NCBI GenBank assembly: GCA_014155875.1
Contig: JACEFZ010004239.1
Location: 182,501-246,500, forward strand
From: Cepaea nemoralis
Lineage: Eukaryota; Mollusca; Gastropoda; Stylommatophora; Helicidae
Direction of reading: 5' to 3'
Length of the DNA stretch: 64,000 nucleotides
Part shown: piece by piece, positions 10,062-59,395 of the stretch
Numbering within the stretch: position 1 is the first letter of the stretch
How the letters are laid out: each line of letters begins with the position of its first letter
Position numbers and translations under genes: made by a program
The notes under the pieces: generated by a model
Seen by the model: the letters and a program-made list of their open reading frames with translations, nothing else
What the model was told of the DNA's origin: nothing
Database searches by the model: none

Positions 10062-10330
10062 ACAGCAAATAATCAATCAATTAATCAGGTGCCGTCTCCA
10101 CAATGAAGGTTGGATGCGATGCATCTTCAACACTGTCTGTCTCTCTTCCTGACTGTATGTTATGTCAGATTGATATTCGTCCATCTCTTGAAGTTGTCTT
10201 TCCACTTGTATCGCTGTCTACCTCTTGCTCACTTGCCTTCAACCTTACCCTCCAGTGTGGTTTTCTAAAGAGTGTTGTAACGTGACCGAAATTTTCATTT
10301 CCATCACTGACTGGTTCCCCTGCCTCGTGC
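10062..10330 (-). pseudogene. LINE-G C-terminal end and 3' UTR (left flank of the satellite)
   Basis: Read on the minus strand from inside the first satellite unit, codons run DTEDTLDMAVHEAGEPVSD and then GNENFGHVTTLF. This matches the standard C-terminal tail of LINE ORF2 proteins, a pattern like RRW..DI..TL.M.VHEA..LA.DR..FR..V. The sequence then enters a 3' UTR that ends near a short ATTG-repeat tail (CAATCAATCAATTAATCA on the plus strand, about 10071-10088). The upstream half of the same protein lies at the other end of the 14-kb array (24580-24790), in the same orientation. The sequence therefore indicates one LINE copy split by expansion of an internal 62-bp segment. Confidence 0.78.
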
Positions 10331-13300
10331 ACTGCCATGTCCAATGTGTCTTCAGTGTCCCGTGAGAATCTTCGTGCTGGTCGACCCCATGCACTACCAT
10401 GCCCAATGTGTCTTTAGTGTCCCGTGAGAATCTTCGTGCTGGTCGACCCCGTGCACTGCCATGCCCAATGTGTCTTCAGTGTCCCGTAAGAATCTTCGTG
10501 CTGTCGACCCCGTGCACTGCCATGCACCAGTGTGTCTGTAAGTTTCCCGGGAGAATCTTCGTGCTGGTCGACCCTGCACTGCATGCCCAATTGTCTTCGT
10601 GTCCCCGGGAGATCTTCGTCTGGTTGACCCCGTGCACTGCAATGTCCCTGTGTCCTTTAGTGTCCCGGTAGAATTATGTGCTGGTCGACGACCCCGTGCA
10701 CTGACCATGCCCAGTGTCTTTATGTCCGTGAAATCTTCGTGCTGGTCGACCCGTGCACATGCCATGCCCAATGTTTTCTGTAGTGTCCCGTGATAATCTT
10801 CGGGCTAGTCGACCCCGTGCACTGCCATGCCCAGTGTGTCTTTAGTGCCCGTTAGAATCTTTGTGCTAGTCGACCCTGTGCACTGCCATGCCCAATGTGT
10901 CTTTAATGTCCCGTGAGAATCTTCGTGCTGGATCGACCCGTGCACTGCCATGCCATGTGTCTGTAGTGTCCGCGTGAGAATCTTCGTGCTGGTCGCCCCC
11001 GTGCACTGCCATGCCATTTGTCTGTTAGTGTCCCGTGAGAATCTCGTGCTAGTCGACCCCGTGCACTGCCAGCCCAATGTGTCTTTAGTGTCCCGTGAGA
11101 ACTTCGTGCTGGTCGAACCCGTCACTGCCATGCCAATGTTTCTTTATTGTCCGCTGAAACTTCGTGCTAGTCGACCCCGTGCCTGCATGACCAATGTGTC
11201 TGTAGTGTCCCGGGAGAATCTTCGTGCTGGTTCGACATCTGCACTGCCTATGCCAATGTGTCTTTAGTGTCCCGTGAGAATCTTCGTGCTAGTTCGAATG
11301 ACCCCGTGCACTGCCATCCCAATGTGTCTTTAGTGGTCTCCGTGAGAATCTTCGTGCTGGTCGACCCGTCCTGCCGATGCCATGTGTCTGTAGTGTACCC
11401 GGCGCAATCTATCGTGCTGGTCGCCCCGTGCATTGCCATGCCCAAGTGGTCTTTATTGTCCCGGGGAGATCTTTCGTGCCATCGACCCTGTGCACGTGCC
11501 AATGGCAGTGGTCTTTAGTGTCCCGGGAGCATCTTCGTGCTAGTTTGACCCTGTGCACGGCCATGCCCAATGTTTGTCGTTTTCTCCCGTGAGAATCTTT
11601 TGCGGTCGACCATGTGTAGCTGCCATGCCCAATTGTCCTTTAGTGTCCCGTGAGAAATCTTCGTGTTAGTCGATCCCTGTGCACTGCCATGCCCAATGTG
11701 GTCGTTTGTCTCCCGTGAGAATCTTTCGTGCTGGTCGACTGTGTACTGCATGCACAGTGTGTCTTTAAGTTTCCCGTGGAGAATCTTCGAGCTGGTCGAC
11801 CCAGTGCACTGCCATGCCCGAATGTGTCTTCAGTGGCCCGTGAGAATCTTCATGGCCAGTCGACCCCGTGCACTGACAATGCCCAGTTGTCTTTATGTCC
11901 CCGTGAATCTTCGTGCTGGTCTACCCCAGTGGGCACTGCCTGCCAATGTTTCATTAGTTTCCCGTGAGAATCTTCGTAGCTAGTCGACGCCCGTTCACTG
12001 CCATGGCCCAATGTGTCTTTAGTGTCCCGTGAGAATCTTCGTGCTGGTCGAACCCCGTGCACTGCCATGCCCATGTGTCTTATTGTCCCGTGAATCTTTG
12101 TGCTAGTCGCCCTGTGCGACTGCATGCCCAATGTTCCTGTATGTCCTGTGATAATCTTCGTGCTTAGTCGACCCCGTGCCTGCCATGCCCGATGTGTCTT
12201 TAGTGTCCTGTGAGAGTCTTCATTCTTATCGACCCCGTGCAAATGCCATGCCCAATGGTCTTTAAGTGTCCCATGCGAATCCTTCGGTTGCTGTACGACC
12301 CCGTGCACTGCCATAGCCCATGTTTCCTTTAGTGTCCCGCGAGAATCTTCGTGCTGGTCGACCCCTTGCAACATTGCCATGCCAATTGTCTTTAGTGTCC
12401 GTGAAATCTTCGTGCCTAGTCGAACCCGTGCACTCCATGCCCAATGTGTCTTCCGTGTCCGTTAGAATCTTCATTGCTAGTCGACCCTGTGCACTGCCAT
12501 GCCCAGTGTGTCTAGTGTCCCGTATAATCTTCGTGCTAGTCGACCGTGCACTGCCATGCCAATGGTCTGCAGTGTCCGGGAGAATCTTCGTGCCAGTCGA
12601 ACCCCGTGCCTGCCATGCCAGTGTGTCTTTAGTGTCCGTGATAATATTCGGCTGTCGAAACCGCCGTGCACTGCCATGCCCAATGTTTTCATGTAGTGTC
12701 CCGTGAGAATCTCGTGCTGGTCGGCCCCGGGCCACTGCAATCCCATGTGTCTGTAGTGCCCGTGAGAATCTTCCGTGCTAGTCGACCCCGTGCACTGGCC
12801 ATGCCCAATGTGTCTTTAGTGTCCGTGAGAATCTTCATGCTGTCGTCCCCGGCACTGCCATCCCAATGTGTCTTAGTGTCCCGTGAGAATCTCGTGCTAG
12901 TCGACCCTTTGCCTGCCATGCCCGCAATGTGTCTGTACTGTCCCGTGCGAATCTTCGTGCTTGTCGACCCCGGCACTGCCATGCCCAATGTGTCTTTAAT
13001 GTCCCGGAGAATCTTCGTGCTAGTCGACCCCGTGCACTGCGATGCCCAATGTGTCTTTATGTCCCCGTGGAAGATCTTCGTGCTAGTCGACCACGTGCAC
13101 TGCCATGCCAATTGTGTCTTTCAGTGTCCCGTGAGGAATCTTCGTGCTCAGTCGACCCTGTGCCTGCCATGCCTAGTGTGTCTTAGTGTCCTCGTGATGA
13201 ATCTTCGTGCTAGTCGACCCTGTGCACGCCATGCCCAATGTGTCGTTGTCTCCCGTGATAATCTTTTGCTGTCGCCATGTGTACTCTGCATGCCCAATGT

Positions 13301-16300
13301 GTCTTTAGTGTCCCCGTGAGAACTTCGTGTTAGTCGACCCTGTGCACTGCCATGCCCATGTTCCGTTTGTCTCCCGTGAGAAATTCTTCGTGCTAGGGTT
13401 CCCCCAAACCATGTGTACTGCCATGCCGCAGTGTGTCTTTAGTGTCCCGTGAGAATCTTCGGCTGGTCGCCACCCGTGCCTGCCCATTCCAATTGGGTGC
13501 TTCATGTGTCCGTGAGCATCTCATCCAGTCGACCCCCGTGCCTGCCATGCCCAGTGTGTTTTTAGTGTCCCGTGAGAATCTTCGTGCTGGTCGACGCCCG
13601 TGCACTGCCTGCCCAAATGTTTCTGTAGTGTCCCAGAGAATCTTCGTGCCTAGTCGACCCCAGTGCCACTGCCATGCCGCTTGTGCTTTAGTGTCCCGTG
13701 AGACTCTTCGTGCTGGTCGACCCCGTGCAACTGCCATTGCCCAATGTGTCTTTAGTGTCCCGTGAGACTCTTTGTGCTAGTTCGACCCCTGTGCCTGCCC
13801 TGCCCACTGTGGTCTGTAGTGTCCTGTGATGAATCTTCGTGCTAGATCCGAGAACCCCGTGGCACTGCCATGCCCAATGGGTCTTTAATTGTTCCTGGAG
13901 AATCTTCGTGCTAGTCGAACCCCGTGCACTGCCATGCCAATGTGTCTTTTAGTGTCCCATGCGAATCTTCGTGCTGGTCGACCCCGGTGCGACTGCCATG
14001 CCCAATGGTCTTTAGTTGGTCCCGGGAGAATCTTCGGTCTGGTCGACCCCGTGGCTACTGCCATTCAAATGTGTCTTTAGTGTCCCGTGAGAATCTTCGT
14101 GCTTCGATGCCCGTGCACTGCCATGGCCCAATTTGTCTTCGTGTCCGTGAGAATCTCGTGCTAGTCGACCCTGTGCAATGCCATCATACCCAGTGTGTCC
14201 TTTTAGTGTCCGCGTGAGAATTCTTCCGTGCTAGTCGAAGGGACCCCGTGCCTGCCATGCCCAATGTGTCTTCAGTGTCGCTTGAGAATCTTCGTGCTGG
14301 TCGACCCCGTGCACTGCCATGCCAATGTGTCTTTAGTGTGCCGGCGTGAGTTAATCTCGTGCTAGTCCGACCCTGTCCTGCATGCCCAGTGTGTCTTTTA
14401 GTGTCCCGTGAGAATCTCGTGCGCGCCCGTGCACTGCATGCCAGTGTGTCTTTAGTGTCCGTGAAATCTTCGTGCGTGGTCGGCCCGGTCACTAGCCATT
14501 CCCAATGTGTCTTTAGTTCCGCGTGGAGAATCTTTGTGCTAGTCGACCCCGTGCACTGCTACCCAATGTTTCTTTAGTGTCCGGGAGAATCTTCGTGCTG
14601 TCGACCCGTAGCACACTTGCCATGGGCCCATGTGTCTTAAGTATGTCCTCGTGAGAAATCTTCGTGCTATCGACCCTTTGCAACTGCGATGCCAGTGTTG
14701 TCTTTAGTGTCCCGTGAGATCTTCGTGCTAGTCTACCTAGTGCCCGTGCCATGCCCATGTGTCGTTTGTCTCGCCGTGAGAATCTTTTGCTGGTCGACCA
14801 TGTGTACTGCCATGCCCAGTGTGTCTTTAGTGTCCCGGGAGAATCTTCGTGCTGGTCGACCCCGTGCACTGCCTGCCCAATGTGTCCTCAGTGTCCCGGG
14901 AGAATCTTCATGCTGGTCGACCCCGTGCACTGCCATGCCCAATGTGTCTTTAGTGTCCCGTGAGAATCTTCGTGCTAGTCGACCCTGTGCACTGCCATGC
15001 CCAATGTGTCGTTTGTCTCCCGTGAGAATCTTCGTGCTGGTCGACCATGTGTACTGCCATGCCCAGTGTGTCTTTAGTGTCCCGTGAGAATCTTCGTGCT
15101 AGTCGACCCTGTGCACTGCCATGCCCAATGTGTCTGTAGTGTCCCGTGCGAATCTTCGTGCTTGTCGACCCCGTGCACTGCCATGCCCAATGTGTCTTTA
15201 GTGTCCCGGGAGAATCTTCGTGCTAGTCGACCCCGTGCACTGCCATGCCCAATGTGTCTTTAGTGTCCCGTGAGAATCTCGTGCTAGTCGACCCCGTGCA
15301 CTGCCATGCCCAATGTGTCTTCAGTGTCCCGTGAGAATCTTCGTGCTAGTCGACCCTGTGCACTGCCATGCCCAGTGTGTCTTTAGTGTCCCGTGAGAAT
15401 CTTCGTGCTAGTCGACCCCGTGCACTGCCATGCCCAATGTGTCTGTAGTGTCCCGTGCGAATCTTCGTGCTTGTCGACCCCGTGCACTGCCATGCCCAAT
15501 GTGTCTTTAGTGTCCTGGGAGAATCTTCGTGCTAGTCGACCCCGTGCACTGCCATGCCCAGTGTGTCTTTAGTGTCCCGTGAGAATCTTCGTGCTAGTCG
15601 ACCCCGTGCACTGCCATGCCCAATGTGTCTTCAGTGTCCCGTGAGAATCTTCGTGCTGGTCGACCCCGTGCACTGCCATGCCCAATGTTTCTGTAGTGTC
15701 CCGTGAGAATCTTCGTGCTGGTCGACCCCGTGCACTGCCATGCCCAATGTGTCTGTAGTGTCCCGTGAGAATCTTCGTGCTAGTCGACCCCGTGCACTGC
15801 CATGCCCAATGTGTCTTTAGTGTCCCGTGAGAATCTTCATGCTGGTCGACCCCGTGCACTGCCATGCCCAATGTGTCTTTAGTGTCCCGTGAGAATCTTC
15901 GTGCTAGTCGACCCTGTGCACTGCCATGCCCAATGTGTCTGTAGTGTCCCGTGCGAATCTTCGTGCTTGTCGACCCCGTGCACTGCCATGCCCAATGTGT
16001 CTTTAGTGTCCCGGGAGAATCTTCGTGCTAGTCGACCCCGTGCACTGCCATGCCCAATGTGTCTTTAGTGTCCCGTGAGAATCTTCGTGCTAGTCGACCC
16101 CGTGCACTGCCATGCCCAATGTGTCTTCAGTGTCCCGTGAGAATCTTCGTGCTAGTCGACCCTGTGCACTGCCATGCCCAGTGTGTCTTTAGTGTCCCGT
16201 GAGAATCTTCGTGCTAGTCGACCCTGTGCACGGCCATGCCCAATGTGTCGTTTGTCTCCCGTGAGAATCTTTGCTGGTCGACCATGTGTACTGCCATGCC

Positions 16301-19300
16301 CAATGTGTCTTTAGTGTCCCGTGAGAATCTTCGTGTTAGTCGACCCTGTGCACTGCCATGCCCAATGTGTCGTTTGTCTCCCGTGAGAATCTTCGTGCTG
16401 GTCGACCATGTGTACTGCCATGCCCAGTGTGTCTTTAGTGTCCCGTGAGAATCTTCGAGCTGGTCGACCCCGTGCACTGCCATGCCCAATGTGTCTTCAG
16501 TGTCCCGTGAGCATCTTCATGCCAGTCGACCCCGTGCACTGCCATGCCCAGTGTGTTTTTAGTGTCCCGTGAGAATCTTCGTGCTGGTCGACCCCGTGCA
16601 CTGCCATGCCCAATGTTTCTGTAGTGTCCCGTGAGAATCTTCGTGCTAGTCGACCCCGTGCACTGCCATGCCCAATGTGTCTTTAGTGTCCCGTGAGAAT
16701 CTTCGTGCTGGTCGACACCGTGCACTGCCATGCCCAATGTGTCTTTAGTGTCCCGTGAGAATCTTTGTGCTAGTCGACCCTGTGCACTGCCATGCCCAAT
16801 GTGTCTGTAGTGTCCTGTGAGAATCTTCGTGCTAGTCGACCCCGTGCACTGCCATGCCCAATGTGTCTTTAGTGTCCCATGCGAATCTTCGTGCTGGTCG
16901 ACCCCGTGCACTGCCATGCCCAATGTGTCTTTAGTGTCCCGGGAGAATCTTCGTGCTGGTCGACCCCGTGCACTGCCATGCCCAGTGTGTCTTTAGTGTC
17001 CCGTGAGAATCTTCGTGCTAGTCGACCCTGTGCACTGCCATGCCCAGTGTGTCTTTAGTGTCCCGTGAGAATCTTCGTGCTAGTCGACCCTGTGCACGGC
17101 CATGCCCAATGTGTCGTTTGTCTCCCGTGAGAATCTTTTGCTGGTCGACCATGTGTACTGCCATGCCCAGTGTGTCTTTAGTGTCCCGGGAGAATCTTCG
17201 TGCTGGTCGACCCCGTGCACTGCCTGCCCAATGTGTCCTCAGTGTCCCGGGAGAATCTTCATGCTGGTCGACCCCGTGCACTGCCATGCCCAATGTGTCT
17301 TTAGTGTCCCGTGAGAATCTTCGTGCTAGTCGACCCTGTGCACTGCCATGCCCAATGTGTCGTTTGTCTCCCGTGAGAATTTTCGTGCTGGTCGACCATG
17401 TGTACTGCCATGCCAGTGTGTCTTTAGTGTCCCGTGAGAATCTTCGAGCTGGTCGACCCCGTGCACTGCCATGCCCAATGTGTCTTCAGTGTCCCGTGAG
17501 AATCTTCGTGCCAGTCGCCCCCGTGCACTGCCATGCCCAGTGTGTCTTTAGTGTCCCGTGAGAATCTTCGTGCTGGTCGACCCCGTGCACTGCCATGCCC
17601 AATGTTTCTGTAGTGTCCCGTGAGAATCTTCGTGCTGGTCGACCCCGTGCACTGCCATGCCCAATGTGTCTGTAGTGTCCCGTGAGAATCTTCGTGCTAG
17701 TCGACCCCGTGCACTGCCATGCCCAATGTGTCTTTAGTGTCCCGTGAGAATCTTCATGCTGGTCGACCCCGTGCACTGCCATGCCCAATGTGTCTTTAGT
17801 GTCCCGTGAGAATCTTCGTGCTAGTCGACCCTGTGCACTGCCATGCCCAGTGTCTGTAGTGTCCCGTGCGAATCTTCGTGCTTGTCGACCCCGTGCACTG
17901 CCATGCCCACTGTGTCTTTAGTGTTCTGGGAGAATCTTCGTGCTAGTCGACCCCGTGCACTGCCATGCCCAATGTGTCTTTAGTGTCCCGTGAGAATCTT
18001 CGTGCTAGTCGACCCCGTGCACTGCCATGCCCAATGTGTCTTCAGTGTCCCGTGAGAATCTTCATGCTAGTCGACCCTGTGCACTGCCATGCCCAGTGTG
18101 TCTTTAGTGTCCCGTGAGAATCTTCGTGCTAGTCGACCCTGTGCACGGCCATGCCCAATGTGTCGTTTGTCTCCCGTGAGAATCTTTTGCTGGTCGACCA
18201 TGTGTACTGCCATGCCCAATGTGTCTTTAGTGTCCCGTGAGAATCTTCGTGTTAGTCGACCCTGTGCACTGCCATGCCCAATGTGTCGTTTGTCTCCCGT
18301 GAGAATCTTCGTGCTGGTCGACCATGTGTACTGCCATGCCCAGTGTGTCTTTAGTGTCCCGTGAGAATGTTCGAGCTGGTCGACCCCGTGCACTGCCATG
18401 CCCAATGTGTCTTCAGTGTCCCGTGAGAATCTTCATGCCAGTCGACCCCGTGCACTGCCATGCCCAGTGTGTCTTTAGTGTCCCGTGAGAATCTTCGTGC
18501 TGGTCGACCCCGTGCACTGCCATGCCCAATGTTTCTGTAGTGTCCCGTGAGAATCTTCGTGCTTGTCGACCCCGTGCACTGCCATGCCCAATGTGTCTTT
18601 AGTGTCCCGTGAGAATCTTCGTGCTGGTCGACCCCGTGCACTGCCATGCCCAATGTGTCTTTAGTGTCCCGTGAGAATCTTTGTGCTAGTCGACCCTGTG
18701 CACTGCCATGCCCAATGTGTCTGTAGTGTCCTGTGAGAATCTTCGTGCTAGTCGACCCCGTGCACTGCCATGCCCAATGTGTCTTTAGTGTCCTGTGAGA
18801 ATCTTCGTGCTAGTCGACCCCGTGCACTGCCATGCCCAATGTGTCTTTAGTGTCCCATGCGAATCTTCGTGCTGGTCGACCCCGTGCACTGCCATGCCCA
18901 ATGTGTCTTTAGTGTCCCGGGAGAATCTTCGTGCTGGTCGACCCCGTGCACTGCCATGCCCAATGTGTCTATTAGTGTCCCGTGAGAATCTTCGTGCTAG
19001 TCGACCCTGTGCACTGCCATGCCCAGTGTCTGTAGTGTCCCGTGCGAATCTTCGTGCTTGTCGACCCCGTGCACTGCCATGCCAATGTGTCTTTAGTGTT
19101 CCGGGAGAATCTTCGTGCTAGTCGACCCCGTGCACTGCCATGCCCAATGTGTCTTTAGTGTCCCGTGAGAATCTTCGTGCTAGTCGACCCCGTGCACTGC
19201 CATGCCCAATGTGTCTTCAGTGTCCCGTGAGAATCTTCGTGCTAGTCGACCCTGTGCACTGCCATGCCCAGTGTGTCTTTAGTGTCCCGTGAGAATCTTC

Positions 19301-22300
19301 GTGCTAGTCGACCCCGTGCTCTGCCATGCCCAATGTGTCTTCAGTGTCCCGTGAGAATCTTCGTGCTGGTCGACCCCGTGCACTGCCATGCCCCAATGTG
19401 TCTTTAGTGTCCCGTGAGAATCTTCGTGCTAGTCAACCCTGTGCACTGCCATTCGCAGTGTGTCTTTAGTGTCCCGTGAGAATCTTCATGCCAGTCGACC
19501 CCGTGCACTGCCATGCCCAGTGTGTCTTTAGTGTCCCGTGAGAATCTTCGTGCTAGTCGACCCCGTGCACTGCCATGCCCAATGTATCTTTAGTGTCCCG
19601 TGAGAATCTTCGTGCTGGTCGACCCCGTGCACTGTCATGCCCAATGTGTCTGTAGTGTCCCGGGAGAATCTTCGTGCTGGTCGACCCCGTGCACTGCCAT
19701 ACCCAATGTGTCTTTAGTGTCCCGGGAGAATCTTCGTGCTAGTCGACCCTGTGAACGGCCATGCCCAATGTGTCGTTTGTCTCCCGTGAGAATCTTTTGC
19801 TGGTCGACCATGTGTACTGCCATGCCCAGTGTGTCTGTAGTGTCCCGTGAGAATCTTCGTGCTGGTCGACCCCGTGCACTGCCATGCCCAATGTGTCTGT
19901 AGTGTCCCGTGAGAATCTTCGTGCTAGTCGACCCCGTGCACTGCCATGCCCAATGTGTCTTTAGTGTCCCGTGAGAATCTTCATGCTGGTCGACCCCGTG
20001 CACTGCCATGCCCAATGTGTCTTTAGTGTCCCGTGAGAATCTTCGTGCTAGTCGACCCCGTGCACTGCCATGCCCAATGTGTCTGTAGTGTCCCGTGCGA
20101 ATCTTCGTGCTTGTCGACCCCGTGCACTGCCATGCCCAATGTGTCTTTAGTGTCCTGGGAGAATCTTCGTGCTAGTCGACCCCCGTGCACTGCCATGCCC
20201 AGTGTGTCTTTAGTGTCCCGTGAGAATCTTCGTGCTAGTCGACCCCGTGCACTGCCATGCCCAATGTGTCTTCAGTGTCCCGTGAGAATCTTCGTGCTGG
20301 TCGACCCCGTGCACTGCCATGCCCAATGTTTCTGTAGTGTCCCGTGAGAATCTTCGTGCTGGTCGACCCCGTGCACTGCCATGCCCAATGTGTCTGTAGT
20401 GTCCCGTGAGAATCTTTGTGCTAGTCGACCCCGTGCACTGCCATGCCCAATGTGTCTTTAGTGTCCCGTGAGAATCTTCGTGCTGGTCGACCCCGTGCAC
20501 TGCCATGCCCAATGTGTCTTTAGTGTCCCGTGAGAATCTTCGTGCTAGTCGACCCTGTGCACTGCCATGCCCAATGTGTCTGTAGTGTCCCGTGCGAATC
20601 TTCGTGCTTGTCGACCCCGTGCACTGCCATGCCCAATGTGTCTTTAGTGTCCCGGGAGAATCTTCGTGCTAGTCGACCCCGTGCACTGCCATGCCCAATG
20701 TGTCTTTAGTGTCCCGTGAGAATCTTCGTGCTAGTCGACCCCGTGCACTGCCATGCCCAATGTGTCTTCAGTGTCCCGTGAGAATCTTCGTGCTAGTCGA
20801 CCCTGTGCACTGCCATGCCCAGTGTGTCTTTAGTGTCCCGTGAGAATCTTCGTGCTAGTCGACCCTGTGCACGGCCATGCCCAATGTGTCGTTTGTCTCC
20901 CGTGAGAATCTTTTGCTGGTCGACCATGTGTACTGCCATGCCCAATGTGTCTTTAGTGTCCCGTGAGAATCTTCGTGTTAGTCGACCCTGTGCACTGCCA
21001 TGCCCAATGTGTCGTTTGTCTCCCGTGAGAATCTTCGTGCTGGTCGACCATGTGTACTGCCATGCCCAGTGTGTCTTTAGTGTCCCGTGAGAATCTTCGA
21101 GCTGGTCGACCCCGTGCACTGCCATGCCCAATGTGTCTTCAGTGTCCCGTGAGAATCTTCATGCCAGTCGACCCCGTGCACTGCCATGCCCAGTGTGTCT
21201 TTAGTGTCCCGTGAGAATCTTCGTGCTGGTCGACCCCGTGCACTGCCATGCCCAATGTTTCTGTAGTGTCCCGTGAGAATCTTCGTGCTAGTCGACCCCG
21301 TGCACTGCCATGCCCAATGTGTCTTTAGTGTCCCGTGAGAATCTTCGTGCTGGTCGACCCCGTGCACTGCCATGCCCAATGTGTCTTTAGTGTCCCGTGA
21401 GAATCTTTGTGCTAGTCGACCCTGTGCACTGCCATGCCCAATGTGTCTGTAGTGTCCTGTGAGAATCTTCGTGCTAGTCGACCCCGTGCACTGCCATGCC
21501 CAATGTGTCTTTAGTGTCCCATGCGAATCTTCGTGCTGGTCGACCCCGTGCACTGCCATGCCCAATGTGTCTTTAGTGTCCCGGGAGAATCTTCGTGCTG
21601 GTCGACCCCGTGCACTGCCATGCCCAGTGTGTCTTTAGTGTCCCGTGAGAATCTTCGTGCTAGTCGACCCTGTGCACTGCCATGCCCAGTGTGTCTTTAG
21701 TGTCCCCGTGAGAATCTTCGTGCTAGTCGAACCCTGTGCACGGCCATGCCCAATGTGTCGTTTGTCTCCCGTGAGAATCTTTTGCTGGTCGACCATGTGT
21801 ACTGCCATGCCCAGTGTGTCTTTAGTGTCCCGGGAGAATCTTCGTGCTGGTCGACCCCGTGCACTGCCTGCCCAATGTGTCCTCAGTGTCCCGGGAGAAT
21901 CTTCGTGCTGGTCGACCCCGTGCACTGCCATGCCCAATGTGTCTTTAGTGTCCCGTGAGAATCTTCGTGCTAGTCGACCCTGTGCACTGCCATGCCCAAT
22001 GTGTCGTTTGTCTCCCGTGAGAATTTTCGTGCTGGTCGACCATGTGTACTGCCATGCCCAGTGTGTCTTTAGTGTCCCGTGAGAATCTTCGAGCTGGTCG
22101 ACCCCGTGCACTGCCATGCCCAATGTGTCTTCAGTGTCCCGTGAGAATCTTCGTGCCAGTCGCCCCCGTGCACTGCCATGCCCAGTGTGTCTTTAGTGTC
22201 CCGTGAGAATCTTCGTGCTGGTCGACCCCGTGCACTGCCATGCCCAATGTTTCTGTAGTGTCCCCGTGAGAATCTTCGTGCTGGTCGACCCCGTGCACTG

Positions 22301-24579
22301 CCATGCCCAATGTGTCTGTAGTGTCCCGTGAGAATCTTCCGTGCTAGTCGACCCCGTGCACTGCCATGCCCAATGTGTCTTTAGTGTCCCGTGAGAATCT
22401 TCCTGCAGGTCGACCCCGTGCACTGCCATGCCCAATGTGTCTTTAGTGTCCCGTGAGAATCTTCGTGCTAGTCGACCCTGTGCACTGCCATGCCCAGTGT
22501 CTGTAGTGTCCCGTGCGAATCTTCGTGCTTGTCGACCCCGTGCACTGCCATGCCCACTGTGTCTTTAGTGTTCTGGGAGAATCTTCGTGCTAGTCGACCC
22601 CGTGCACTGCCATGCCCAATGTGTCTTTAGTGTCCCGTGAGAATCTTCGTGCTAGTCGACCCCGTGCACTGCCATGCCCAATGTGTCTTCAGTGTCCCGT
22701 GAGAATCTTCATGCTAGTCGACCCTGTGCACTGCCATGCCCAGTGTGTCTTTAGTGTCCCGTGAGAATCTTCGTGCTAGTCGACCCTGTGCACGGCCATG
22801 CCCAATGTGTCGTTTGTCTCCCGTGAGAATCTTTTGCTGGTCGACCATGTGTACTGCCATGCCCAATGTGTCTTTAGTGTCCCGTGAGAATCTTCGTGTT
22901 AGTCGACCCTGTGCACTGCCATGCCCAATGTGTCGTTTGTCTCCCGTGAGAATCTTCGTGCTGGTCGACCATGTGTACTGCCATGCCCAGTGTGTCTTTA
23001 GTGTCCCGTGAGAATGTTCGAGCTGGTCGACCCCGTGCACTGCCATGCCCAATGTGTCTTCAGTGTCCCGTGAGAATCTTCATGCCAGTCGACCCCGTGC
23101 ACTGCCATGCCCAGTGTGTCTTTAGTGTCCCGTGAGAATCTTCGTGCTGGTCGACCCCGTGCACTGCCATGCCCAATGTTTCTGTAGTGTCCCGTGAGAA
23201 TCTTCGTGCTTGTCGACCCCGTGCACTGCCATGCCCAATGTGTCTTTAGTGTCCCGTGAGAATCTTCGTGCTGGTCGACCCCGTGCACTGCCATGCCCAA
23301 TGTGTCTTTAGTGTCCCGTGAGAATCTTTGTGCTAGTCGACCCTGTGCACTGCCATGCCCAATGTGTCTGTAGTGTCCTGTGAGAATCTTCGTGCTAGTC
23401 GACCCCGTGCACTGCCATGCCCAATGTGTCTTTAGTGTCCTGTGAGAATCTTCGTGCTAGTCGACCCCGTGCACTGCCATGCCCAATGTGTCTTTAGTGT
23501 CCCATGCGAATCTTCGTGCTGGTCGACCCCGTGCACTGCCATGCCCAATGTGTCTTTAGTGTCCCGGGAGAATCTTCGTGCTGGTCGACCCCGTGCACTG
23601 CCATGCCCAATGTGTCTTTAGTGTCCCGTGAGAATCTTCGTGCTAGTCGACCCTGTGCACTGCCATGCCCAGTGTCTGTAGTGTCCCGTGCGAATCTTCG
23701 TGCTTGTCGACCCCGTGCACTGCCATGCCCAATGTGTCTTTAGTGTTCCGGGAGAATCTTCGTGCTAGTCGACCCCGTGCACTGCCATGCCCAATGTGTC
23801 TTTAGTGTCCCGTGAGAATCTTCGTGCTAGTCGACCCCGTGCACTGCCATGCCCAATGTGTCTTCAGTGTCCCGTGAGAATCTTCGTGCTAGTCGACCCT
23901 GTGCACTGCCATGCCCAGTGTGTCTTTAGTGTCCCGTGAGAATCTTCGTGCTAGTCGACCCCGTGCTCTGCCATGCCCAATGTGTCTTCAGTGTCCCGTG
24001 AGAATCTTCGTGCTGGTCGACCCCGTGCACTGCCATGCCCAATGTGTCTTTAGTGTCCCGTGAGAATCTTCGTGCTAGTCAACCCTGTGCACTGCCATTC
24101 GCAGTGTGTCTTTAGTGTCCCGTGAGAATCTTCATGCCAGTCGACCCCGTGCACTGCCATGCCCAGTGTGTCTTTAGTGTCCCGTGAGAATCTTCGTGCT
24201 AGTCGACCCCGTGCACTGCCATGCCCAATGTATCTTTAGTGTCCCGTGAGAATCTTCGTGCTGGTCGACCCCGTGCACTGTCATGCCCAATGTGTCTGTA
24301 GTGTCCCGGGAGAATCTTCGTGCTGGTCGACCCCGTGCACTGCCATACCCAATGTGTCTTTAGTGTCCCGGGAGAATCTTCGTGCTAGTCGACCCTGTGA
24401 ACGGCCATGCCCAATGTGTCGTTTGTCTCCCGTGAGAATCTTTTGCTGGTCGACCATGTGTACTGCCATGCCCAGTGTGTCTTTAGTGTCCCGTGAGAAT
24501 CTTCGAGCTGGTCGACCCCGTGCACTGCCATGCCCAATGTGTCTTCAGTGTCCCGTGAGAATATTCGTGCTGGTCGACC
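10325..24579. repeat. 62-bp satellite array, about 230 monomers, derived from LINE coding sequence
   Basis: The monomer contains TGTCCCGTGAGAATCTTCGT, then GCTAGTCGACCCCGTGCACT, then GCCATGCCCAATGTGTCTTT. The 62-bp period is exact in the clean part (for example GCTGGTCGAC at 15841 and GCTAGTCGAC at 15903). Nearly every unit carries GTCGAC. Variant units exist, including a GTCGTTTGTCTCCC type and a GCGAATC type. Read on the minus strand each unit encodes GRPARRFSRDTKDTLGMAVH, the C-terminal LINE motif found once in each flank. Because 62 is not a multiple of 3 the frame shifts at each unit, so the array does not encode a repetitive protein. From 10.3 to about 14.75 kb the units carry many single-base indels; beyond that they are clean. 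Confidence 0.97.
15000..24579. repeat. Higher-order repeat of about 4.64 kb, two tandem copies, in the satellite
   Basis: Variant-unit patterns recur with a constant offset: 15569 with 20210, 16435 with 21077, 17102 with 21746, 18067 with 22714, 18351 with 22998 and 19600 with 24246. The offset is 4641-4647 bp, or about 75 monomers. Even rare changes such as the deletion in CTGCCTGCCC and the CCATTCGCAG variant recur at that distance. A block of many monomers was therefore duplicated as a unit after the array formed. Confidence 0.85.
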
Positions 24580-24790
24580 CTATTCCCTTCTCCCAGGAAC
24601 CACGCCTTCCACCCCTGTTCTCTCCAAACCGCTGTACTTTTTAATATGGTCAAAGTATTTCAGTCTCTGAGACATGATACTGTTTATGTGTCTGTTGTCT
24701 TCGAAGTTTAGATCTTGTAGAATCGCAATTTTGTCTTTTTCGGTATTCCAAGCATGTGTCGGTAACGTTTTAGGTCAAAGGCCGCGATGT
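24580..24790 (-). pseudogene. LINE-G C-terminal region, upstream part (right flank of the satellite)
   Basis: Read on the minus strand, the codons include YRHMLGIP and, after a frameshift, AILQDLNFEDNRHI, then SIMSQRLKYFDHI, KKYSGLERTG and VEGVVPGRRE. After a single stop the frame runs on into GRPARIFSRDTEDTLGMAVH, which is the satellite monomer. This is the order of the post-RT tail of a LINE ORF2 (rRMLgIPW, LQeL, R.L.yFGHi.R, G.vpG.RgRGRP..RW). Together with 10062-10330 it brackets the array. Frameshifts and stops show it is not functional. Confidence 0.82.
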
Positions 24791-24835
24791 TTCCTGTTCT
24801 TCTTTCACCCTTTACCCATCATTGGGGCGTAAGCC

Positions 24836-25030
24836 CTCAGCCCAAACACACAAAGCCACCCTATCTCTAGCTGTCTCATGCAGGCTCTGTCGTCACTGCT
24901 CCTCAACCCAATCACACAAAGCCACCCAATCTTTAGCTATCTCATGCAGCTCTGTCACTCTCCCTCAACTCAATCACACAAAGCCACCCAATCTTTGGCT
25001 ATCTCATGCAGCTCTGTCACTGTCCCTCAT
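24836..25030. repeat. Minisatellite of 62-66 bp, about 3 copies
   Basis: The word CACACAAAGCCACCC recurs near 24847, 24913 and 24975, with CTATCTCATGCAG(G)CTCTGTC in each unit. The period resembles that of the neighbouring satellite, but the sequence is unrelated. Confidence 0.8.
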
Positions 25031-27326: not shown

Positions 27327-27574
27327 AGTCGGCTCCCTGGCCGAGCGGTTAGCAGCTTTCTCCGTTAACCCCGAATACTCTCGTGGTTGACGTGCGCGCA
27401 GGAGAATTAGAAGTGGTTCGAGTCGCGCCAGTGACTTATGAGAGTATGGAGCCGGTCGCTCAGAAAGTCGTGGCGTGCTGATGAACGTAATCTAGCCTAG
27501 GAATCAACATACAGCTGAAAGATTCTGGTGTTGACCTCAATATCCTGAAACAAGGTGGAAATTGGGGGGAAAAA
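27327..27574 (+). mobile_element. SINE-A, full length with target-site duplication
   Basis: This is a 248-bp tRNA-derived SINE. The head carries an A box (CTGGCCGAGCGGTTAGCAG) and a B box (GTGGTTCGAGTCGCG), the internal Pol III promoter of tRNA genes. The A box resembles those of the long-variable-arm class (Ser/Leu). The body reads GAGCCGGTCGCTCAGAAAG, then GAACGTAATC and ACATACAGCTGAAAGATTC, ending in an A-rich tail. A perfect 15-bp duplication flanks it. It depends on a LINE for movement; which one is not shown by the tail. Confidence 0.92.
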
Positions 27575-39735: not shown

Positions 39736-40690
39736 CTTGTTCACCTCCCCAGACACACTATCATATCACGGTGGTCTTGTTCACAGTCCCAGACACACTC
39801 TCACACCATACTGGACATGTTCACCGCCCCAGACACACTCTCACATCATGCTGGACATGTTCACCGCCCCAGACACACTCTCACATCATGCTGACATGTT
39901 CACCGCCCTAGACACACTCTCACACCATGCTGGACATGTTCACCGCCCCAGACACACTCTCACACCATACTGGACATGTTCACCGCCCCAGACACACTCT
40001 CACATCATGCTGGACATGTTCACCGCCCCAGACACACTCTCACACCATACTGGACATGTTCACCGCCCTAGACACACTCTCACATCATACTGGACATGTT
40101 CACCGCCCTAGACACACTCTCACACCATACTGGACATGTTCACCGCCCCAGACACACTCTCACACCATACTGGACATGTTCACCGCCCCAGACACACTCT
40201 CACACCATACTGGACATGTTCACCGCCCCAGACACACTCTCACACCATGCTGGACATGTTCACCGCCCCAGACACACTCTCACACCATGCTGGACATGTT
40301 CACCGCCCCAGACACACTCTCACACCATACTGGACATGTTCACCGTCCCAGACACACTCTCACACCATGCTGGACATGTTCACCGCCCCAGACACACTCT
40401 CACACCATGCTGGACATGTTCACCGCCCCAGACACACTCTCACACCATACTGGACATGTTCACCGCCCCAGACACACTCTCACACCATGCTGGACATGTT
40501 CACCGCCCCAGACACACTCTCACATCATACTGGACATGTTCACCGCCCCAGACACACTCTCACACCATGCTGGACATGTTCACCGCCCCAGACACACTCT
40601 CACACCATGCTGGACATGTTCACCGCCCCAGACACACTCTCACACCATACTGGACATGTTCACCGTCCCAGACACACTCTCACATCTCAG
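39736..40690. repeat. 40-bp array P, copy A (about 24 units)
   Basis: The unit is CATGTTCACCGCCCCAGACA followed by CACTCTCACACCATACTGGA. The period is exactly 40 bp. The unit has no stop in any plus-strand frame, so three overlapping frames of up to 262 codons run through it. A homologous array lies at 56405-57620. Confidence 0.96.
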
Positions 40691-40884
40691 TGGTCTTACT
40701 CTGCCAACAGTTTGAGATCAGCTGATCCAGATCACCATATCGACCCTTGTGTTGTACGATATATGTAGGTTACAGAGCAGAAAGAGCTGTCTGTATTTAC
40801 TCGGTCACATACAAGGACGCTCTCCCCGCTACAGCCTTCCTACGATATGCCAGCTAATACGCATGTTCTTTGTCTTACTTAGTA

Positions 40885-41110
40885 CAGCGGGCGCGTTGGT
40901 ATAACGGCTAGGAAGTTTCACCAACAATGGCATGGCCGCGGTGGGGCGAAAGTTCGATTCCTGGACTCGCCGCTCAACACGGGAGGGAAAGACGATCCAC
41001 CTAATCCTCCATGCACCCACATACCCACATACAAAATGTGCTGGCTCTAGCACATCATAGACCATCCCAGGTTCCTGAGAAGTGTCAACCATGTTTTGTC
41101 TGTAGTGATG
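40885..41110 (+). mobile_element. SINE-D, copy A
   Basis: GCGTTGGTATAACGGCTAGG resembles an A box, and GCGAAAGTTCGATTCCTGG carries a B box. The body reads CACGGGAGGGAAAGACGATC and runs to a TTTTGTCTGTAGTG end. It is also present at 57815-58070, so it predates the duplication. Confidence 0.6.
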
Positions 41111-41139
41111 TATGTTCACGTAGAACACAACCATTATCA

Positions 41140-42081
41140 TTAGAGTAATATATAGTTCCTCTAGAGGAAACTACTTGTGTAATGTATGTTCCCGTAGACA
41201 AGCAGATGATTTGCCATCTAAAGAAATATATGTTCCCCTACACTAGCAGCTTAGCAGCTGACATTGTCTAAAGAAATATGTGTTCCCAAAGACCCACAGA
41301 AGGCATTTTATCTAAAGAAATATATGTTTCCGTAGACCAGCAGATGACATATTATCTAAAGAAATATATGTTCTCTTAGACCAGCAGATGACATATTATC
41401 TAAAGAAATATATGTTCTCTTAGACCAGCAGATGACATATTATCTAAAGAAATATATGTTCTCTAAGACCAGCAGATGACATATTATCTAAAGAAATATA
41501 TGTTCTCGTAGACCAGCAGATGACATATTATCTAAAGAAATATATGTCCCCATAGACCAGCAGATGACATATTATCTATAAAAAAATATATGTTCTCGTA
41601 GACCAGCAGATGACATATTATCTAAAGAAGTATATGTTCTCGTAGTCCAGCAGATGACATATTATCTAAAGAAATATATGTTCTCGTAGACCAGCAGATG
41701 ACATATTATCTAAAGAAATATATGTTCTCTTAGACCAGCAGATGACATATTATCTAAAGAAATATATGTTCTCGTAGACCAGCAGATGACATATTATCTA
41801 AAGAAATATATGTTTCCCTAGACCAGATAAGATTTTATCTATAGAAATGTATGTTCCCGTAGACCAGCAGATGACGTGTCATCTAAAGAAACATGTGTTC
41901 TCTGTGAACAGCAGACGACATTTTGTCTAAAGAAATATATGTTCCAGTAGAACACATAAGAGAACATTTTATCTATAGAAATGTGTTCCCGTAGAACACA
42001 GACGACATTTTACACAGAGAAATATGTTCCCGTAGAGCTTAGGCAATATTTTACATAGATAAATATGTTCCCATAGAACAT
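41140..42081. repeat. 44-bp array Q, copy A, left part
   Basis: The unit is CATATTATCTAAAGAAATAT followed by ATGTTCTCGTAGACCAGCAG and ATGA, 44 bp. Towards the right the units change to a TTTTACACAGAGAAATATG, TTCCCGTAGAACACAGACG type. The LTR element interrupts the array; it resumes at 50547. Confidence 0.94.
42077..42081. repeat. LTR element target-site duplication, left (AACAT)
   Basis: AACAT here and at 50293-50297 immediately flank the TG...CA ends of the element. Confidence 0.9.
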
Positions 42082-56404: not shown

Positions 56405-57620
56405 ACACATTCTCAACACCATACTGACATGTTCACCGCCCCAACACAACTACTCACAGACACACCATGGCTGGACTATGTTCTACCGCCCTAGACACAC
56501 TCTCACACCATCCTGTACATGTTCACCGCCCCAGACAACACTCTCACACCATGCTGCACATGTTCACCGCCCCAGACACACTCTCACACCATACTGGACA
56601 CTCTTTTCACCGCCCCATGACACACTCTCCACCATGCCTTGGACATGCTCACCGCCCCAGACACACTCTCACACCATACTGGACACGCTTACCGCCCCAG
56701 ACACACTCTCACACCATACTGGACATGTTCACCGCCCCAGACACACTCTTGCACCATACTGGACATGTTCACAGCCCTAGACACACTCTCACACCATTCT
56801 GGACATGCTCACCGCCCCAGACACACTCTCACACCATACTGGACATGTTCACCGCCCCAGAGACACTTCACACACCATGCTGGGCATGCTCACCGCCCTA
56901 GACACACTCTCACACCATGCTGGGCATGTTCACTGTCTCAGACACACTCTCACACCATACTGGACATGTTCACCGCCCTAGACACACTCTCACACCATGC
57001 TGGACACGCTTACCGCCCCAGACACACTCTCACACCATACTGGACATGTTCACCGCCCCAGACACACTCTTACACCATACTGGACATGTTCACCGCCCCA
57101 GACACACTCTTACACCATACTGGACATGTTCACAGCCCTAGGCACACTCTCACACCATTCTGGACATGTTCACCGCCCCAGAGACACTCTCACACCATGC
57201 TGGGCATGCTCACCGCCCTAGACACACTCTCACACCATGCTGGGCATGTTCACTGTCTCAGACACACTCTCACACCATACTGGACATGTTTACCGCCCCA
57301 GACACACTTTCACACGATGCTGGACATGTTCACAGCCCCAGACACACTCTCACGTCATGCTGGACATGTTCAGCGCTCCAGACAGACTCTCATGTCATGC
57401 TGGACATGTTCAGCGCTCCAGACACGGTGATCTTGTTCACCACCCCAGACACACTCTCACACGATGCTGGACATGTTCACCGCCCCAGACACACTCTCAC
57501 GTCATGCTGGACATGTTCACCGCCCCAGACACACTCTCACGTCATGCTGGACATGTTCCCCACCCCAGACACACTCTCACACCATGCTGGACATGTTCAC
57601 CGCCCCAGACACACTCTCAC
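56405..57620. repeat. 40-bp array P, copy B (about 30 units)
   Basis: The same 40-bp unit as 39736-40690, with more variants (GGGCATGCTCACC, CACTGTCTCAG, CAGCGCTCCAG) and small insertions at the left edge. Frames of up to 263 codons result from the stop-free unit. Confidence 0.95.
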
Positions 57621-57814
57621 ATCTCAGTGGTCTTACTCTGCCAACAGTTTGAGATCAGCTGATCCAGATCACCATATCGACCCTTGTGTTGTACAGTACA
57701 TGTAGGTTACAGGGCAGAAAGAGCTGTCTGTATTTACTCGGTCACATACAAGGACGCTCTCCCCGCTACAGCCTTCCTGCGATATGCCAGCTAATACGCA
57801 TGTTCTTTGTCTTA
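57621..57814. other. Unique spacer of the segmental duplication, copy B
   Basis: Matches 40690-40884 with few differences (TCAGTGGTCTTACTCTGCC, CTCGGTCACATACAAGGACG). No gene is seen. Confidence 0.85.
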
Positions 57815-58070
57815 GTACAGCGGGCGCGTTGGTATAACGGCTAGGAAGTTTCACCAACAATGGCATGGCCGCGGTGGGGCGAGAGTTCGATTCCTGGGCT
57901 CGTCGCTCAACACGGGAGGGAAAGACGATCCGCCTAATCCTCCATGCACCCACATACAAAATGTGAAGGCTCTAGCACATCATAGACCATCGCAGGTTCC
58001 TGGGCCAGCACTTGACTTAGTACATGTTGTTCCTTAGAACTGTCAACCATGTTTTGTCTGTAGTGATATG
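57815..58070 (+). mobile_element. SINE-D, copy B
   Basis: Same element as 40885-41110, with B box GAGAGTTCGATTCCTGG. An insertion-like stretch near 58001-58025 (GGGCCAGCACTTGACTTAG) is absent from copy A. Confidence 0.6.
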
Positions 58071-58079
58071 AGTCCACGT

Positions 58080-59395
58080 AGAACACAACCATTATCATTA
58101 GAGTAATATATATTTCCTCTAGAGGAAACTACTTGTGTAATGTATGTTCACGTAGACAAGCAGATGACATGCTATCTAAAGAATTATATGTTTCTGTAGA
58201 CAAGCTGATGACATGCTATCTAAAGAATTATATGTTTCTGTAGACAAGCTGATGACATGCTATCTAAAGAAAAATATGTTGCCGTAAATCAGCAGATGAC
58301 ATGCTATCTAAAGAAATATATGTTCTCGTAAACCAGCAAATGACATGCTATCTAAAGAAATATATGTTCTCGTAAACCAGCAAATGACATGCTATCTAAA
58401 GAAAAATATGTTGCCGTAAATCAGCAGATGACATGCTATCTAAAGAAATATATGTTCCCTTAAACCAGCAGATGACATGCTATCTAAAGAAATATATGTT
58501 CCCGTAGACCAGAAGATAACATTATCTAAAGAAATATATGTTCCCGTAGACCAACAGATGACTTGCTATCTAAAGAAATATATGTTCCCATAGACCAGAA
58601 GGTGACATTTTGTCTAAAGAAATATATGTTTCCCTAGACCAGCAGATAAGATTTTATCTATAGAAATGTATGTTCCCGTAGACCAGCAGATTCACATTAT
58701 CTAAAGAAATTATGTTCCCGTAGACCAGCAGATGGCGTGTCATCTAAAGAAACATGTGTTCTCGGTGAACAGCAGACGACATTTTGTCTAAAGAAATATA
58801 TGTTCCTATAGAACACATAAGAGAACATTTTATCTAGAGAAATATGTTCCCGTAGAACACAGACGACATTTTACACAGAGAAATATGTTCGCGTAGAACA
58901 CAGACGACATTTTACACAGAGAAATATGTTCCCGTAGAACACAGACGACATTTTACACAGAGAAATATGTTCCCGTAGAACACAGACGACATTTTACACA
59001 GAGAAATATGTTCGCGTAGAACACAGACGACATTTTACACAGAGAAATATGTTCCCGTAGAACACAGACGACATTTTACACAGAGAAATATGTTCCCGTA
59101 GAACACAGACGACATTTTACACAGAGAAATATGTTCCCGTAGAACACAGACGACATTTTACACAGAGAAATATGTTCCCGTAGAACACAGACGACATTTT
59201 ACACAGAGAAATATGTTCCCGTAGAGCATAGCCAATATTTTACATAGATAAAAATGTTCCCATAGAACATAGACGACATTATACATAGATGAATATGGTC
59301 CCATAGAACATAGGCAACATTATAAATAGATAAATATGATCCCATAAAACATAGATGACATTTTACATAGAGATATATGTAGAAGATGGCTGACA
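58080..59395. repeat. 44-bp array Q, copy B (uninterrupted)
   Basis: The same two unit types as 41140-42081, running without a break. Near the right end, CCCATAGAACATAGACGACAT at about 59269-59288 is the counterpart of the LTR/SINE insertion site in copy A. A block of nearly identical 44-bp units at 58850-59220 shows a recent local expansion. Confidence 0.95.

What the first reader, a model, noticed from the sequence alone, without database searches (positions are those of the whole stretch)
10062..24790. A 14-kb satellite that appears to have grown inside the coding end of a LINE
The 62-bp monomer, read on the minus strand, is GRPARRFSRDTKDTLGMAVH. The right flank reads LKYFDHI, GVEGVVPGRRE and then runs in frame (after one stop) into GRPARIFSRDTEDTLGMAVH. 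The left flank leaves the array as DTLDMAVHEAGEPVSD and NENFGHVTTLF, then a 3' UTR. Both flanks are in the same orientation and are complementary halves of one LINE ORF2 C-terminus. So a single 62-bp coding segment seems to have amplified in place about 230 times. That gives a satellite whose birthplace can be read directly, which is rare.
Basis: partly seen in the sequence, partly recalled or inferred. Interest (0 to 1): 0.9.

Follow-up and report, generated by a model that had tools for sequence, protein, structure and literature searches.

The report
Satellite born inside a dead LINE
In a snail genome a 62-base piece from the coding end of one decayed jumping gene has multiplied in place into a long tandem array found at no other place in the assembly, and other copies of the same jumping gene have grown their own, different arrays, so the start of a satellite can be read directly.

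Summary
The array is real: 62 bp x about 230 at 10326-24580. Genome searches support the core idea. The LINE family ("LINE A") carries the monomer segment once in its ORF2 C-terminus; right flank + one unit + 26 bp of left flank is one collinear LINE A stretch. The unit-unit junction (up to 3 mismatches) occurs 155 times in the 3.47-Gb assembly, all 155 in this array, so it grew here. Three corrections. (1) The flanks are not two halves of one LINE: beyond 26 bp the left flank is a second LINE ("B", 10071-10300) covering the same ORF2 positions. (2) The copy number is soft: about 10450-14800 has an abrupt excess of indels typical of unpolished long reads, and a 4.65-kb block is present twice at about 99.7%. 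(3) Such birthplaces are not rare here: 14 of 39 other LINE A loci carry arrays made of LINE A's own C-terminus, units 25-110 bp. A built-in imperfect 10-bp direct repeat 68 bp apart probably seeded two of the other arrays and perhaps this one. The host is almost certainly Cepaea nemoralis. LINE-derived tandem arrays are a known kind.

The parts
10326..24580 (-). 62-bp tandem array, about 230 units as assembled, found at this locus only
   Evidence: TRF; wrap-around alignment, 230 units plus 3 bases over 10323-24580; junction 35-mer: 155 matches in the genome, 155 in this array
14801..24580 (-). clean part of the array, 158 units; a 75-unit (4.65-kb) block is present twice, with weaker periods of 31 and 44 units
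   Evidence: indel profile; lag-75 identity 0.99, lag 31 and 44 peaks; 13 differences over 71 units
10450..14800 (-). interior stretch with a raw-read-like indel rate; several blocks of it carry the same unit variants as the clean part
24584..24779 (-). right flank: 5'-truncated LINE A, ORF2 C-terminal linker (positions 24-229 of the LINE A consensus)
   Evidence: 79.6% identity to consensus; HMM 61.9 bits; 2696 first-look candidates in the genome, 40 scored
10301..10326 (-). remnant of the same LINE A just beyond the array (EAGEPVSDG)
   Evidence: protein extension control: 1 of 300 shuffles and 1 of 700 random 10-mers as good; DNA control 2 of 1000; of 40 other LINE B matches none reaches bases 1-17 of the left-flank query and only 3 begin before base 27
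10071..10300 (-). second LINE (LINE B), C-terminal coding end and 3' end
   Evidence: 40 other places matched, 39 of them at 83-89% identity; 5584 first-look candidates, 40 scored
25030..25208 (-). third repeated element ('LINE C'), read by eye as an ORF2 C-terminus
   Evidence: 39 other places matched, 1449 first-look candidates; its protein is not significantly similar to A or B, so calling it a LINE rests on motif reading from recall
24834..25029 (-). 3.1 x 62-bp array at the end of LINE C; its unit is unrelated to the main unit
   Evidence: TRF; unit comparison: 64 of 300 shuffles as good, 47 of 300 in reverse complement; 0 of 9 fetched LINE C relatives has an array

Best explanation
A 5'-truncated, decayed copy of LINE A, followed within 26 bp by the 3' end of a LINE B copy, underwent a tandem duplication of a 62-bp piece of its ORF2 C-terminal coding sequence. 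Later unequal exchange or copying enlarged it to well over a hundred units; the last visible step is a copy of a 75-unit block. Shown: one LINE A ancestor for right flank, monomer and 26 bp of left flank; a single unit in relatives; confinement to this locus in the assembly. Inferred: the seeding step. In the LINE A consensus GAGACAGGGG and GAGGCAGGAG lie 68 bp apart. Slippage or template switching between them explains the 68-bp array at L031 and fits the 63-bp array at L075. The 62-bp unit here looks like the 68-bp product minus 6 bp, or a join inside the same pair. The unit shifts the reading frame, so a coding role is unlikely.
For: LINE A HMM from 13 external proteins: right flank 61.9 bits; joined with one unit and the left remnant 97.3 bits over positions 14-113, with one 3-residue gap that is outside the monomer. 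Adding EAGEPVSDGN raises the score from 89.2 to 96.8 (residues that follow inside the array: 91.3); 1 of 300 shuffles and 1 of 700 random 10-mers reach it. A consensus from 17 loci has the segment once and then EAGEMARDRETF. Empty site against consensus: 230 of 286 aligned bases identical, 22 gap positions. Junction 35-mer: 155 of 155 genome matches here. The four loci nearest in tree distance (L066, L058, L070, L043) each have the segment once by HMM and none has the 62-bp array. Direct repeat spacing 68; L031 shows GAGGCAGGGG before its array and GAGGCAGAGG after it.
Against: The right flank no longer shows the direct repeat and no 68-bp junction survives: GAGGCAGGGG occurs only at the left edge, so the seeding model is not proven here. 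The left remnant is only 26 bp. Most other LINE A arrays use units elsewhere in the C-terminus, so the pair is not the only seed. The two edge units are 60 of 62 identical and share a minority base, but interior units 69 and 144 are closer to each (61 of 62), so the edges are not clearly the oldest units. Tree supports around the window copy are 0.45-0.82 and rest on about 157 bp. The external relatives were found with a query that included a row guessed by me. The assembly may misstate the array size.
Confidence: 0.87

Rival explanations
1. The satellite arose elsewhere and was inserted into, or copied to, this LINE copy.
For: Satellites often spread (general knowledge); monomer-like matches exist at other places at 80-83% identity.
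Against: All 155 junction matches in the genome are in this array. The other places were fetched (L029-L034): they carry single LINE A-like segments, one duplicated fragment (L030) or, at L031, an array with a different unit. The flanks are collinear with the monomer.
Confidence: 0.04
2. LINE A carries a variable tandem repeat in ORF2 as a family feature, spread by retrotransposition, and the array is inherited.
For: 14 of 39 loci have LINE A-derived arrays; three pairs (L045/L046, L050/L072, L053/L055) share theirs.
Against: Units differ (25 to 110 bp) and map to different parts of the consensus, between about 65 and 327. Carriers are scattered over the tree. The 17-locus consensus has one unit. 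L031 and L075 cluster with support 0.0, so a shared origin of those two is neither shown nor excluded.
Confidence: 0.06
3. One reading: both flanks are the complementary halves of a single LINE copy.
For: Same orientation; 26 bp of left flank does continue LINE A.
Against: The rest of the left flank is LINE B and covers the same HMM positions 60-118 as right flank plus monomer; A-B alignment score 63 against a maximum of 36 in 500 shuffles; LINE B occurs as its own family; the LINE A tail was not found in the window.
Confidence: 0.02
4. Not exclusive with the best explanation: the array is real but much of its length is an assembly product, a smaller array inflated by merging assemblies.
For: Abrupt indel change at about 14800; a 71-unit block repeated with 13 differences; the source assembly merged three reduced assemblies (passages of PMC8022989).
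Against: 57 distinct unit types among 155 clean units and a mean unit-to-unit identity of about 0.93 are not what assembly duplication alone gives.
Confidence: 0.35

Closest known systems
LINE-derived satellites: PROsat (Phodopus, L1 ORF2), Pvc 20 (seal, L1 ORF2), HinfI/SCR1 (chicken, CR1 3' UTR and partial ORF2), common cetacean satellite (L1 3' end); as listed in PMC9659126 (passages seen)
   Same: satellite monomer related to a LINE, often near its 3' end
   Different: here the founding copy and both edges of the array are visible, the unit is a 62-bp coding piece, and the array is at one locus; whether the founding copies of the listed satellites are known was not checked
TE-derived tandem repeats of the human genome (PMC3389668; abstract and sections 3.3 and 3.4 read)
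   Same: tandem repeats started inside individual TE copies, some flanked by 5-20 bp direct repeats; some TE regions hit more often than others
   Different: there two known start mechanisms explain 6%, and most of the unexplained have two units; here one LINE family shows a series of arrays from one ORF2 end, up to about 230 units
Minisatellite birth between short flanking repeats (Haber and Louis model, as cited in PMC3389668 section 3.4; 5-10 bp repeats in PMC6947457, passages seen)
   Same: L031: the 68-bp unit equals the spacing of an imperfect 10-bp direct repeat in LINE A
   Different: in the window the unit is 62 bp and the repeat survives only on the left edge
Oyster satellite-like arrays carried by Helentrons (PMC7492417; search listing and start of abstract only)
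   Same: mollusc arrays linked to mobile elements
   Different: there the arrays are carried by the element; here they seem to grow separately in individual LINE copies

Membership tests
satellite / minisatellite array | head-to-tail copies of one unit, far beyond chance | tested here: met
satellite DNA in the strict sense (abundant, at many loci) | presence at more than one locus | tested here: not met
   155 of 155 junction matches at one locus; by this measure it is a very large single-locus minisatellite; raw reads and heterochromatin were not examined
TE-derived tandem repeat | unit homologous to a repeated element that exists as single-unit copies | tested here: met
in-situ origin | both flanks collinear with the same element copy | tested here: met
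   right flank about 200 bp, left flank 26 bp
non-LTR retrotransposon (LINE) for elements A and B | reverse transcriptase linked to this C-terminus | tested here: inconclusive
   A matches 38 of the 120 listed proteins at E < 1e-3 in a search of just those 120, B matches as low as 1e-10; several members of that family are named endonuclease-reverse transcriptase or carry PF00078; no RT was recovered for LINE A itself and Pfam was blank or below cut-off on the 5 pieces tried
non-LTR retrotransposon (LINE) for element C | similarity to other LINE C-termini | tested here: inconclusive
   no significant similarity to A, B or the LINE at 2321; reading as a LINE end is from recall
RTE-type LINEs | RT phylogeny | not tested
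   RTE/Bov-B is the largest LINE class in the Cepaea nemoralis table (PMC8022989 passage), but the elements here were not classified
direct-repeat-seeded duplication (Haber and Louis type) | short direct repeat at both ends of the founding unit | tested here: inconclusive
   met in L031 and in the LINE A consensus; only the left copy remains in the window

The most novel reading that the evidence does not exclude
The C-terminal coding end of LINE A is a recurrent nursery of minisatellites in this genome: its many copies act as replicate starting sequences in which tandem arrays are born independently, partly through a direct repeat that the protein code itself supplies (the RGRGRP and EAGE codons), and one of them has grown to satellite size.
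Probability: 0.4. Interest if true: 0.7.

Novelty: new member of a known kind. Interest (0 to 1): 0.55.

Why it matters
How a satellite starts is usually hidden, because old arrays have lost their founding context. Here the founder is a LINE family with first-look candidates in the thousands, so single-unit, two-unit and many-unit stages of nearly the same sequence can be lined up and the join of each duplication read base by base. That makes competing start mechanisms (slippage between direct repeats, joins without homology, exchange) countable in one genome, and it raises the question why this genome makes so many arrays (about 0.4 per kb in the stretches examined).

Tried and rejected
Protein search with the joined flanks alone found nothing; a two-row alignment found 26 relatives among 97 candidates. 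A 26-base and a 23-base core of the monomer have no exact match in viral contigs and genome contigs, as expected for an animal sequence. tRNA and Rfam scans of the window were empty. A link between the two 62-bp units (main array and LINE C array) was rejected. A simple insertion of LINE B into LINE A was not supported, since the LINE A tail was not found in the window; template switching or deletion remain open. The first LINE B control (L010-L028, 19 loci: 0 arrays overlapping the matched stretch) was set aside because its query spanned the whole LINE B end and so favoured uninterrupted copies; it was replaced by an upstream query. Rows dropped from the count of 14: arrays near LINE A whose unit does not score above shuffles (L040 54 bp, L042/L044 45 bp, L043 40 bp, L071 52 bp), the weak L067 (72 bp, score 40 against a shuffle maximum of 34) and L054 (20 bp, not scored). 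Pfam gave nothing useful on LINE A pieces.

Full report
What is there. TRF reports a 62-bp array at 10326-24580, 230 units, 87% matches. A wrap-around alignment gives 230 units plus 3 bases over 10323-24580. The first 155 clean units hold 57 distinct types, with a mean unit-to-unit identity of about 0.927 over lags 1-119.

Length caveat. In ten-unit bins insertions plus deletions are 0-0.4 per unit in the clean part and 2.8-6.7 below about 14800; mismatches are 1.6-3.8 and 2.7-4.7. The switch lies at units 157-158, and the last two units at the left edge (10326-10449) are clean again. Several blocks of the noisy stretch carry variant patterns of the clean part; others match weakly. This fits unpolished long-read sequence better than biology. 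In the clean part units 75 apart are 0.99 identical on average, with lesser peaks at 31, 44 and 106. Units 2-72 differ from units 77-147 at 13 places. So either a recent 4.65-kb duplication or an assembly duplication is present.

Host. G000 has 3,472,891,610 bases in 26,579 contigs, and contig C23255 is 3,510,238 bases long. The final Cepaea nemoralis draft has 26,580 contigs over 10 kb, a longest contig of 3,510,238 bases, and 3,490,924,950 bases in all 28,537 contigs (passages of PMC8022989). I take the host to be that snail. The same passages say that three reduced assemblies were merged and that the result was polished with PacBio and Illumina reads, which fits the noisy stretch.

One LINE, one unit. 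A profile search gave 26 proteins; 13 of them made the HMM Afam. In the 15 relatives aligned the monomer segment occurs once each, as in P0123: GRPARRWTQDIGDTLGMTIH followed by EAGRLAGDRESF. Right flank alone scores 61.9 bits; right flank + unit + left remnant scores 97.3 bits, collinear. Adding EAGEPVSDGN raises the score from 89.2 to 96.8, while the residues that follow inside the array give 91.3; 1 of 300 shuffles and 1 of 700 random 10-mers reach 96.8. In the genome the right flank has 39 other scored matches besides itself, all 39 in hand as L040-L078. A 443-base consensus of 17 of them reads ...VVPGRRDRGQPA*RWTQDIADTLGMRVHEAGEMARDRETF...CKGPAT**, one unit only. The empty site matches it at 230 of 286 aligned bases with 22 gap positions.

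Confined to one locus. The 35-base unit-unit junction with up to 3 mismatches has 155 matches in the genome (100 are listed) and 155 in the window, all in the array. At this sensitivity the array is not a dispersed satellite in this assembly.

The flanks. LINE B begins at about 10300: of 40 other matches to the left-flank query, 37 start at base 27 or later, three at 18, 21 and 26, and none covers bases 1-17. LINE B covers Afam positions 60-118, the same stretch as the right flank plus unit, and LINE A and LINE B proteins align with score 63 against a maximum of 36 in 500 shuffles (LINE B bridged across its frameshift). The rest of the LINE A tail was not found in the window. Upstream of LINE A stands the end of a third repeated element, C, with its own 3.1 x 62-bp array. 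The two units are not related, and 0 of 9 fetched C relatives has an array. C showed no significant similarity to A, B or a fourth LINE of the window, so its LINE status is by motif reading. The shared period of 62 is unexplained and may be chance.

Recurrent births. Among the 39 other LINE A loci, 14 hold arrays whose unit derives from LINE A: L045 and L046 (57 bp), L048 (25), L050 and L072 (110), L053 and L055 (96), L056 (67), L064 (48), L066 (46), L070 (31 and 42), L073 (58), L075 (63), L076 (34); each unit scored above all of 100 shuffles against the consensus. Counting the three pairs once gives 11. L031, found by the monomer query and so not part of this count, has 8.1 units of 68 bp. 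Units lie at different places of the consensus and the carriers are scattered in the tree. Nearest to the window copy by tree distance are L066 (own 46-bp array elsewhere in the C-terminus), L058, L070 (own 31- and 42-bp arrays) and L043; each has the monomer segment once by HMM, and L058 and L043 have no LINE A-derived array.

Is LINE A special? In matched 0.9-kb stretches any array is seen in 19 of 39 LINE A, 6 of 20 LINE B (three of them with the same flank) and 0 of 9 LINE C loci; A against B alone gives p 0.14, A against B plus C p 0.016. Arrays in the LINE's own sequence within the same geometry, so without L066: 13 of 39 against 2 of 29 (LINE B 2 of 20, judged by position, two units each; C 0 of 9), p 0.008; with pairs counted once 10 of 36, p 0.03; against LINE B alone p 0.047, or 0.11 with pairs counted once; in the strictest form, which also drops L076, 9 of 36 against 2 of 29, p 0.052. 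By an earlier zone count the density is 0.96 per kb in the LINE A zone (15 arrays) and 0.41 outside it (36 arrays), p 0.007, or 0.028 for 13 arrays; that count included L071, not made of LINE A, and a second, unscored array at L076, and missed L053 and L055. Background is 0.40 per kb around LINE B and 0.43 in the window. Cautions: loci are best matches, not a random sample; zones were chosen after looking; LINE A matches are 73-85% identical to their query and LINE B matches 86-89% to theirs, so LINE A copies are probably older and had more time. LINE A may be only moderately special in a genome that makes arrays everywhere.

Mechanism. In the consensus GAGACAGGGG (226) and GAGGCAGGAG (294) are 68 bp apart. 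L031 has GAGGCAGGGG before its array and GAGGCAGAGG after it, with a 68-bp unit. L075 has GAGGCAGGGAAG at its unit junction. In the window the left edge reads GAGGCAGGGG (from 10326) and there is no other copy in the array; the unit junction GTGCAC-GGGGTCGACC is the 68-bp form lacking six bases. I infer the same seed with a later 6-bp loss, or a join within the same pair; this step is not shown. Growth by unequal exchange or copying is inferred from the 31/44/75-unit blocks.

Known or new. LINE-derived satellites, ORF2-derived ones included, are on record (PMC9659126 passages). TE-derived tandem repeats and regions more often hit are on record for human (PMC3389668 abstract and sections 3.3-3.4). 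The listings of searches showed no title or abstract start describing this array or recurrent arrays in a snail LINE; they cover an open-licence library only, and only the papers named here were opened. So this is a new, unusually legible member of a known kind; the series of arrays in one LINE family is the more interesting part.

Noticed in passing
window 39738-42036 and 56461-59225: A 40-bp array followed by a 44-bp array occurs twice with near-identical units about 16.7 kb apart, which looks like a segmental duplication.
   Followed up: no
window 24834-25029: The end of LINE C carries 3.1 copies of a 62-bp unit unrelated to the main unit but of the same length.
   Followed up: partly
L056 (G000:C3924:7143), L056 1682-3156: On the same contig as the window, another LINE A copy holds a 67-bp array of at least 22 units running to the end of the fetched stretch.
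   Followed up: partly
L048 1735-2926: A 25-bp array of 47.7 units made from the DTFGMRVHK codons of LINE A.
   Followed up: partly
L030 (G000:C15296): The same LINE A fragment appears twice, 1.43 kb apart.
   Followed up: no
window 27330-27450: Stretch that by eye resembles a tRNA-like SINE head; ARAGORN and Rfam found nothing.
   Followed up: no
window 10450-14800: Raw-read-like indel rate inside the array, a marker of unpolished assembly.
   Followed up: yes
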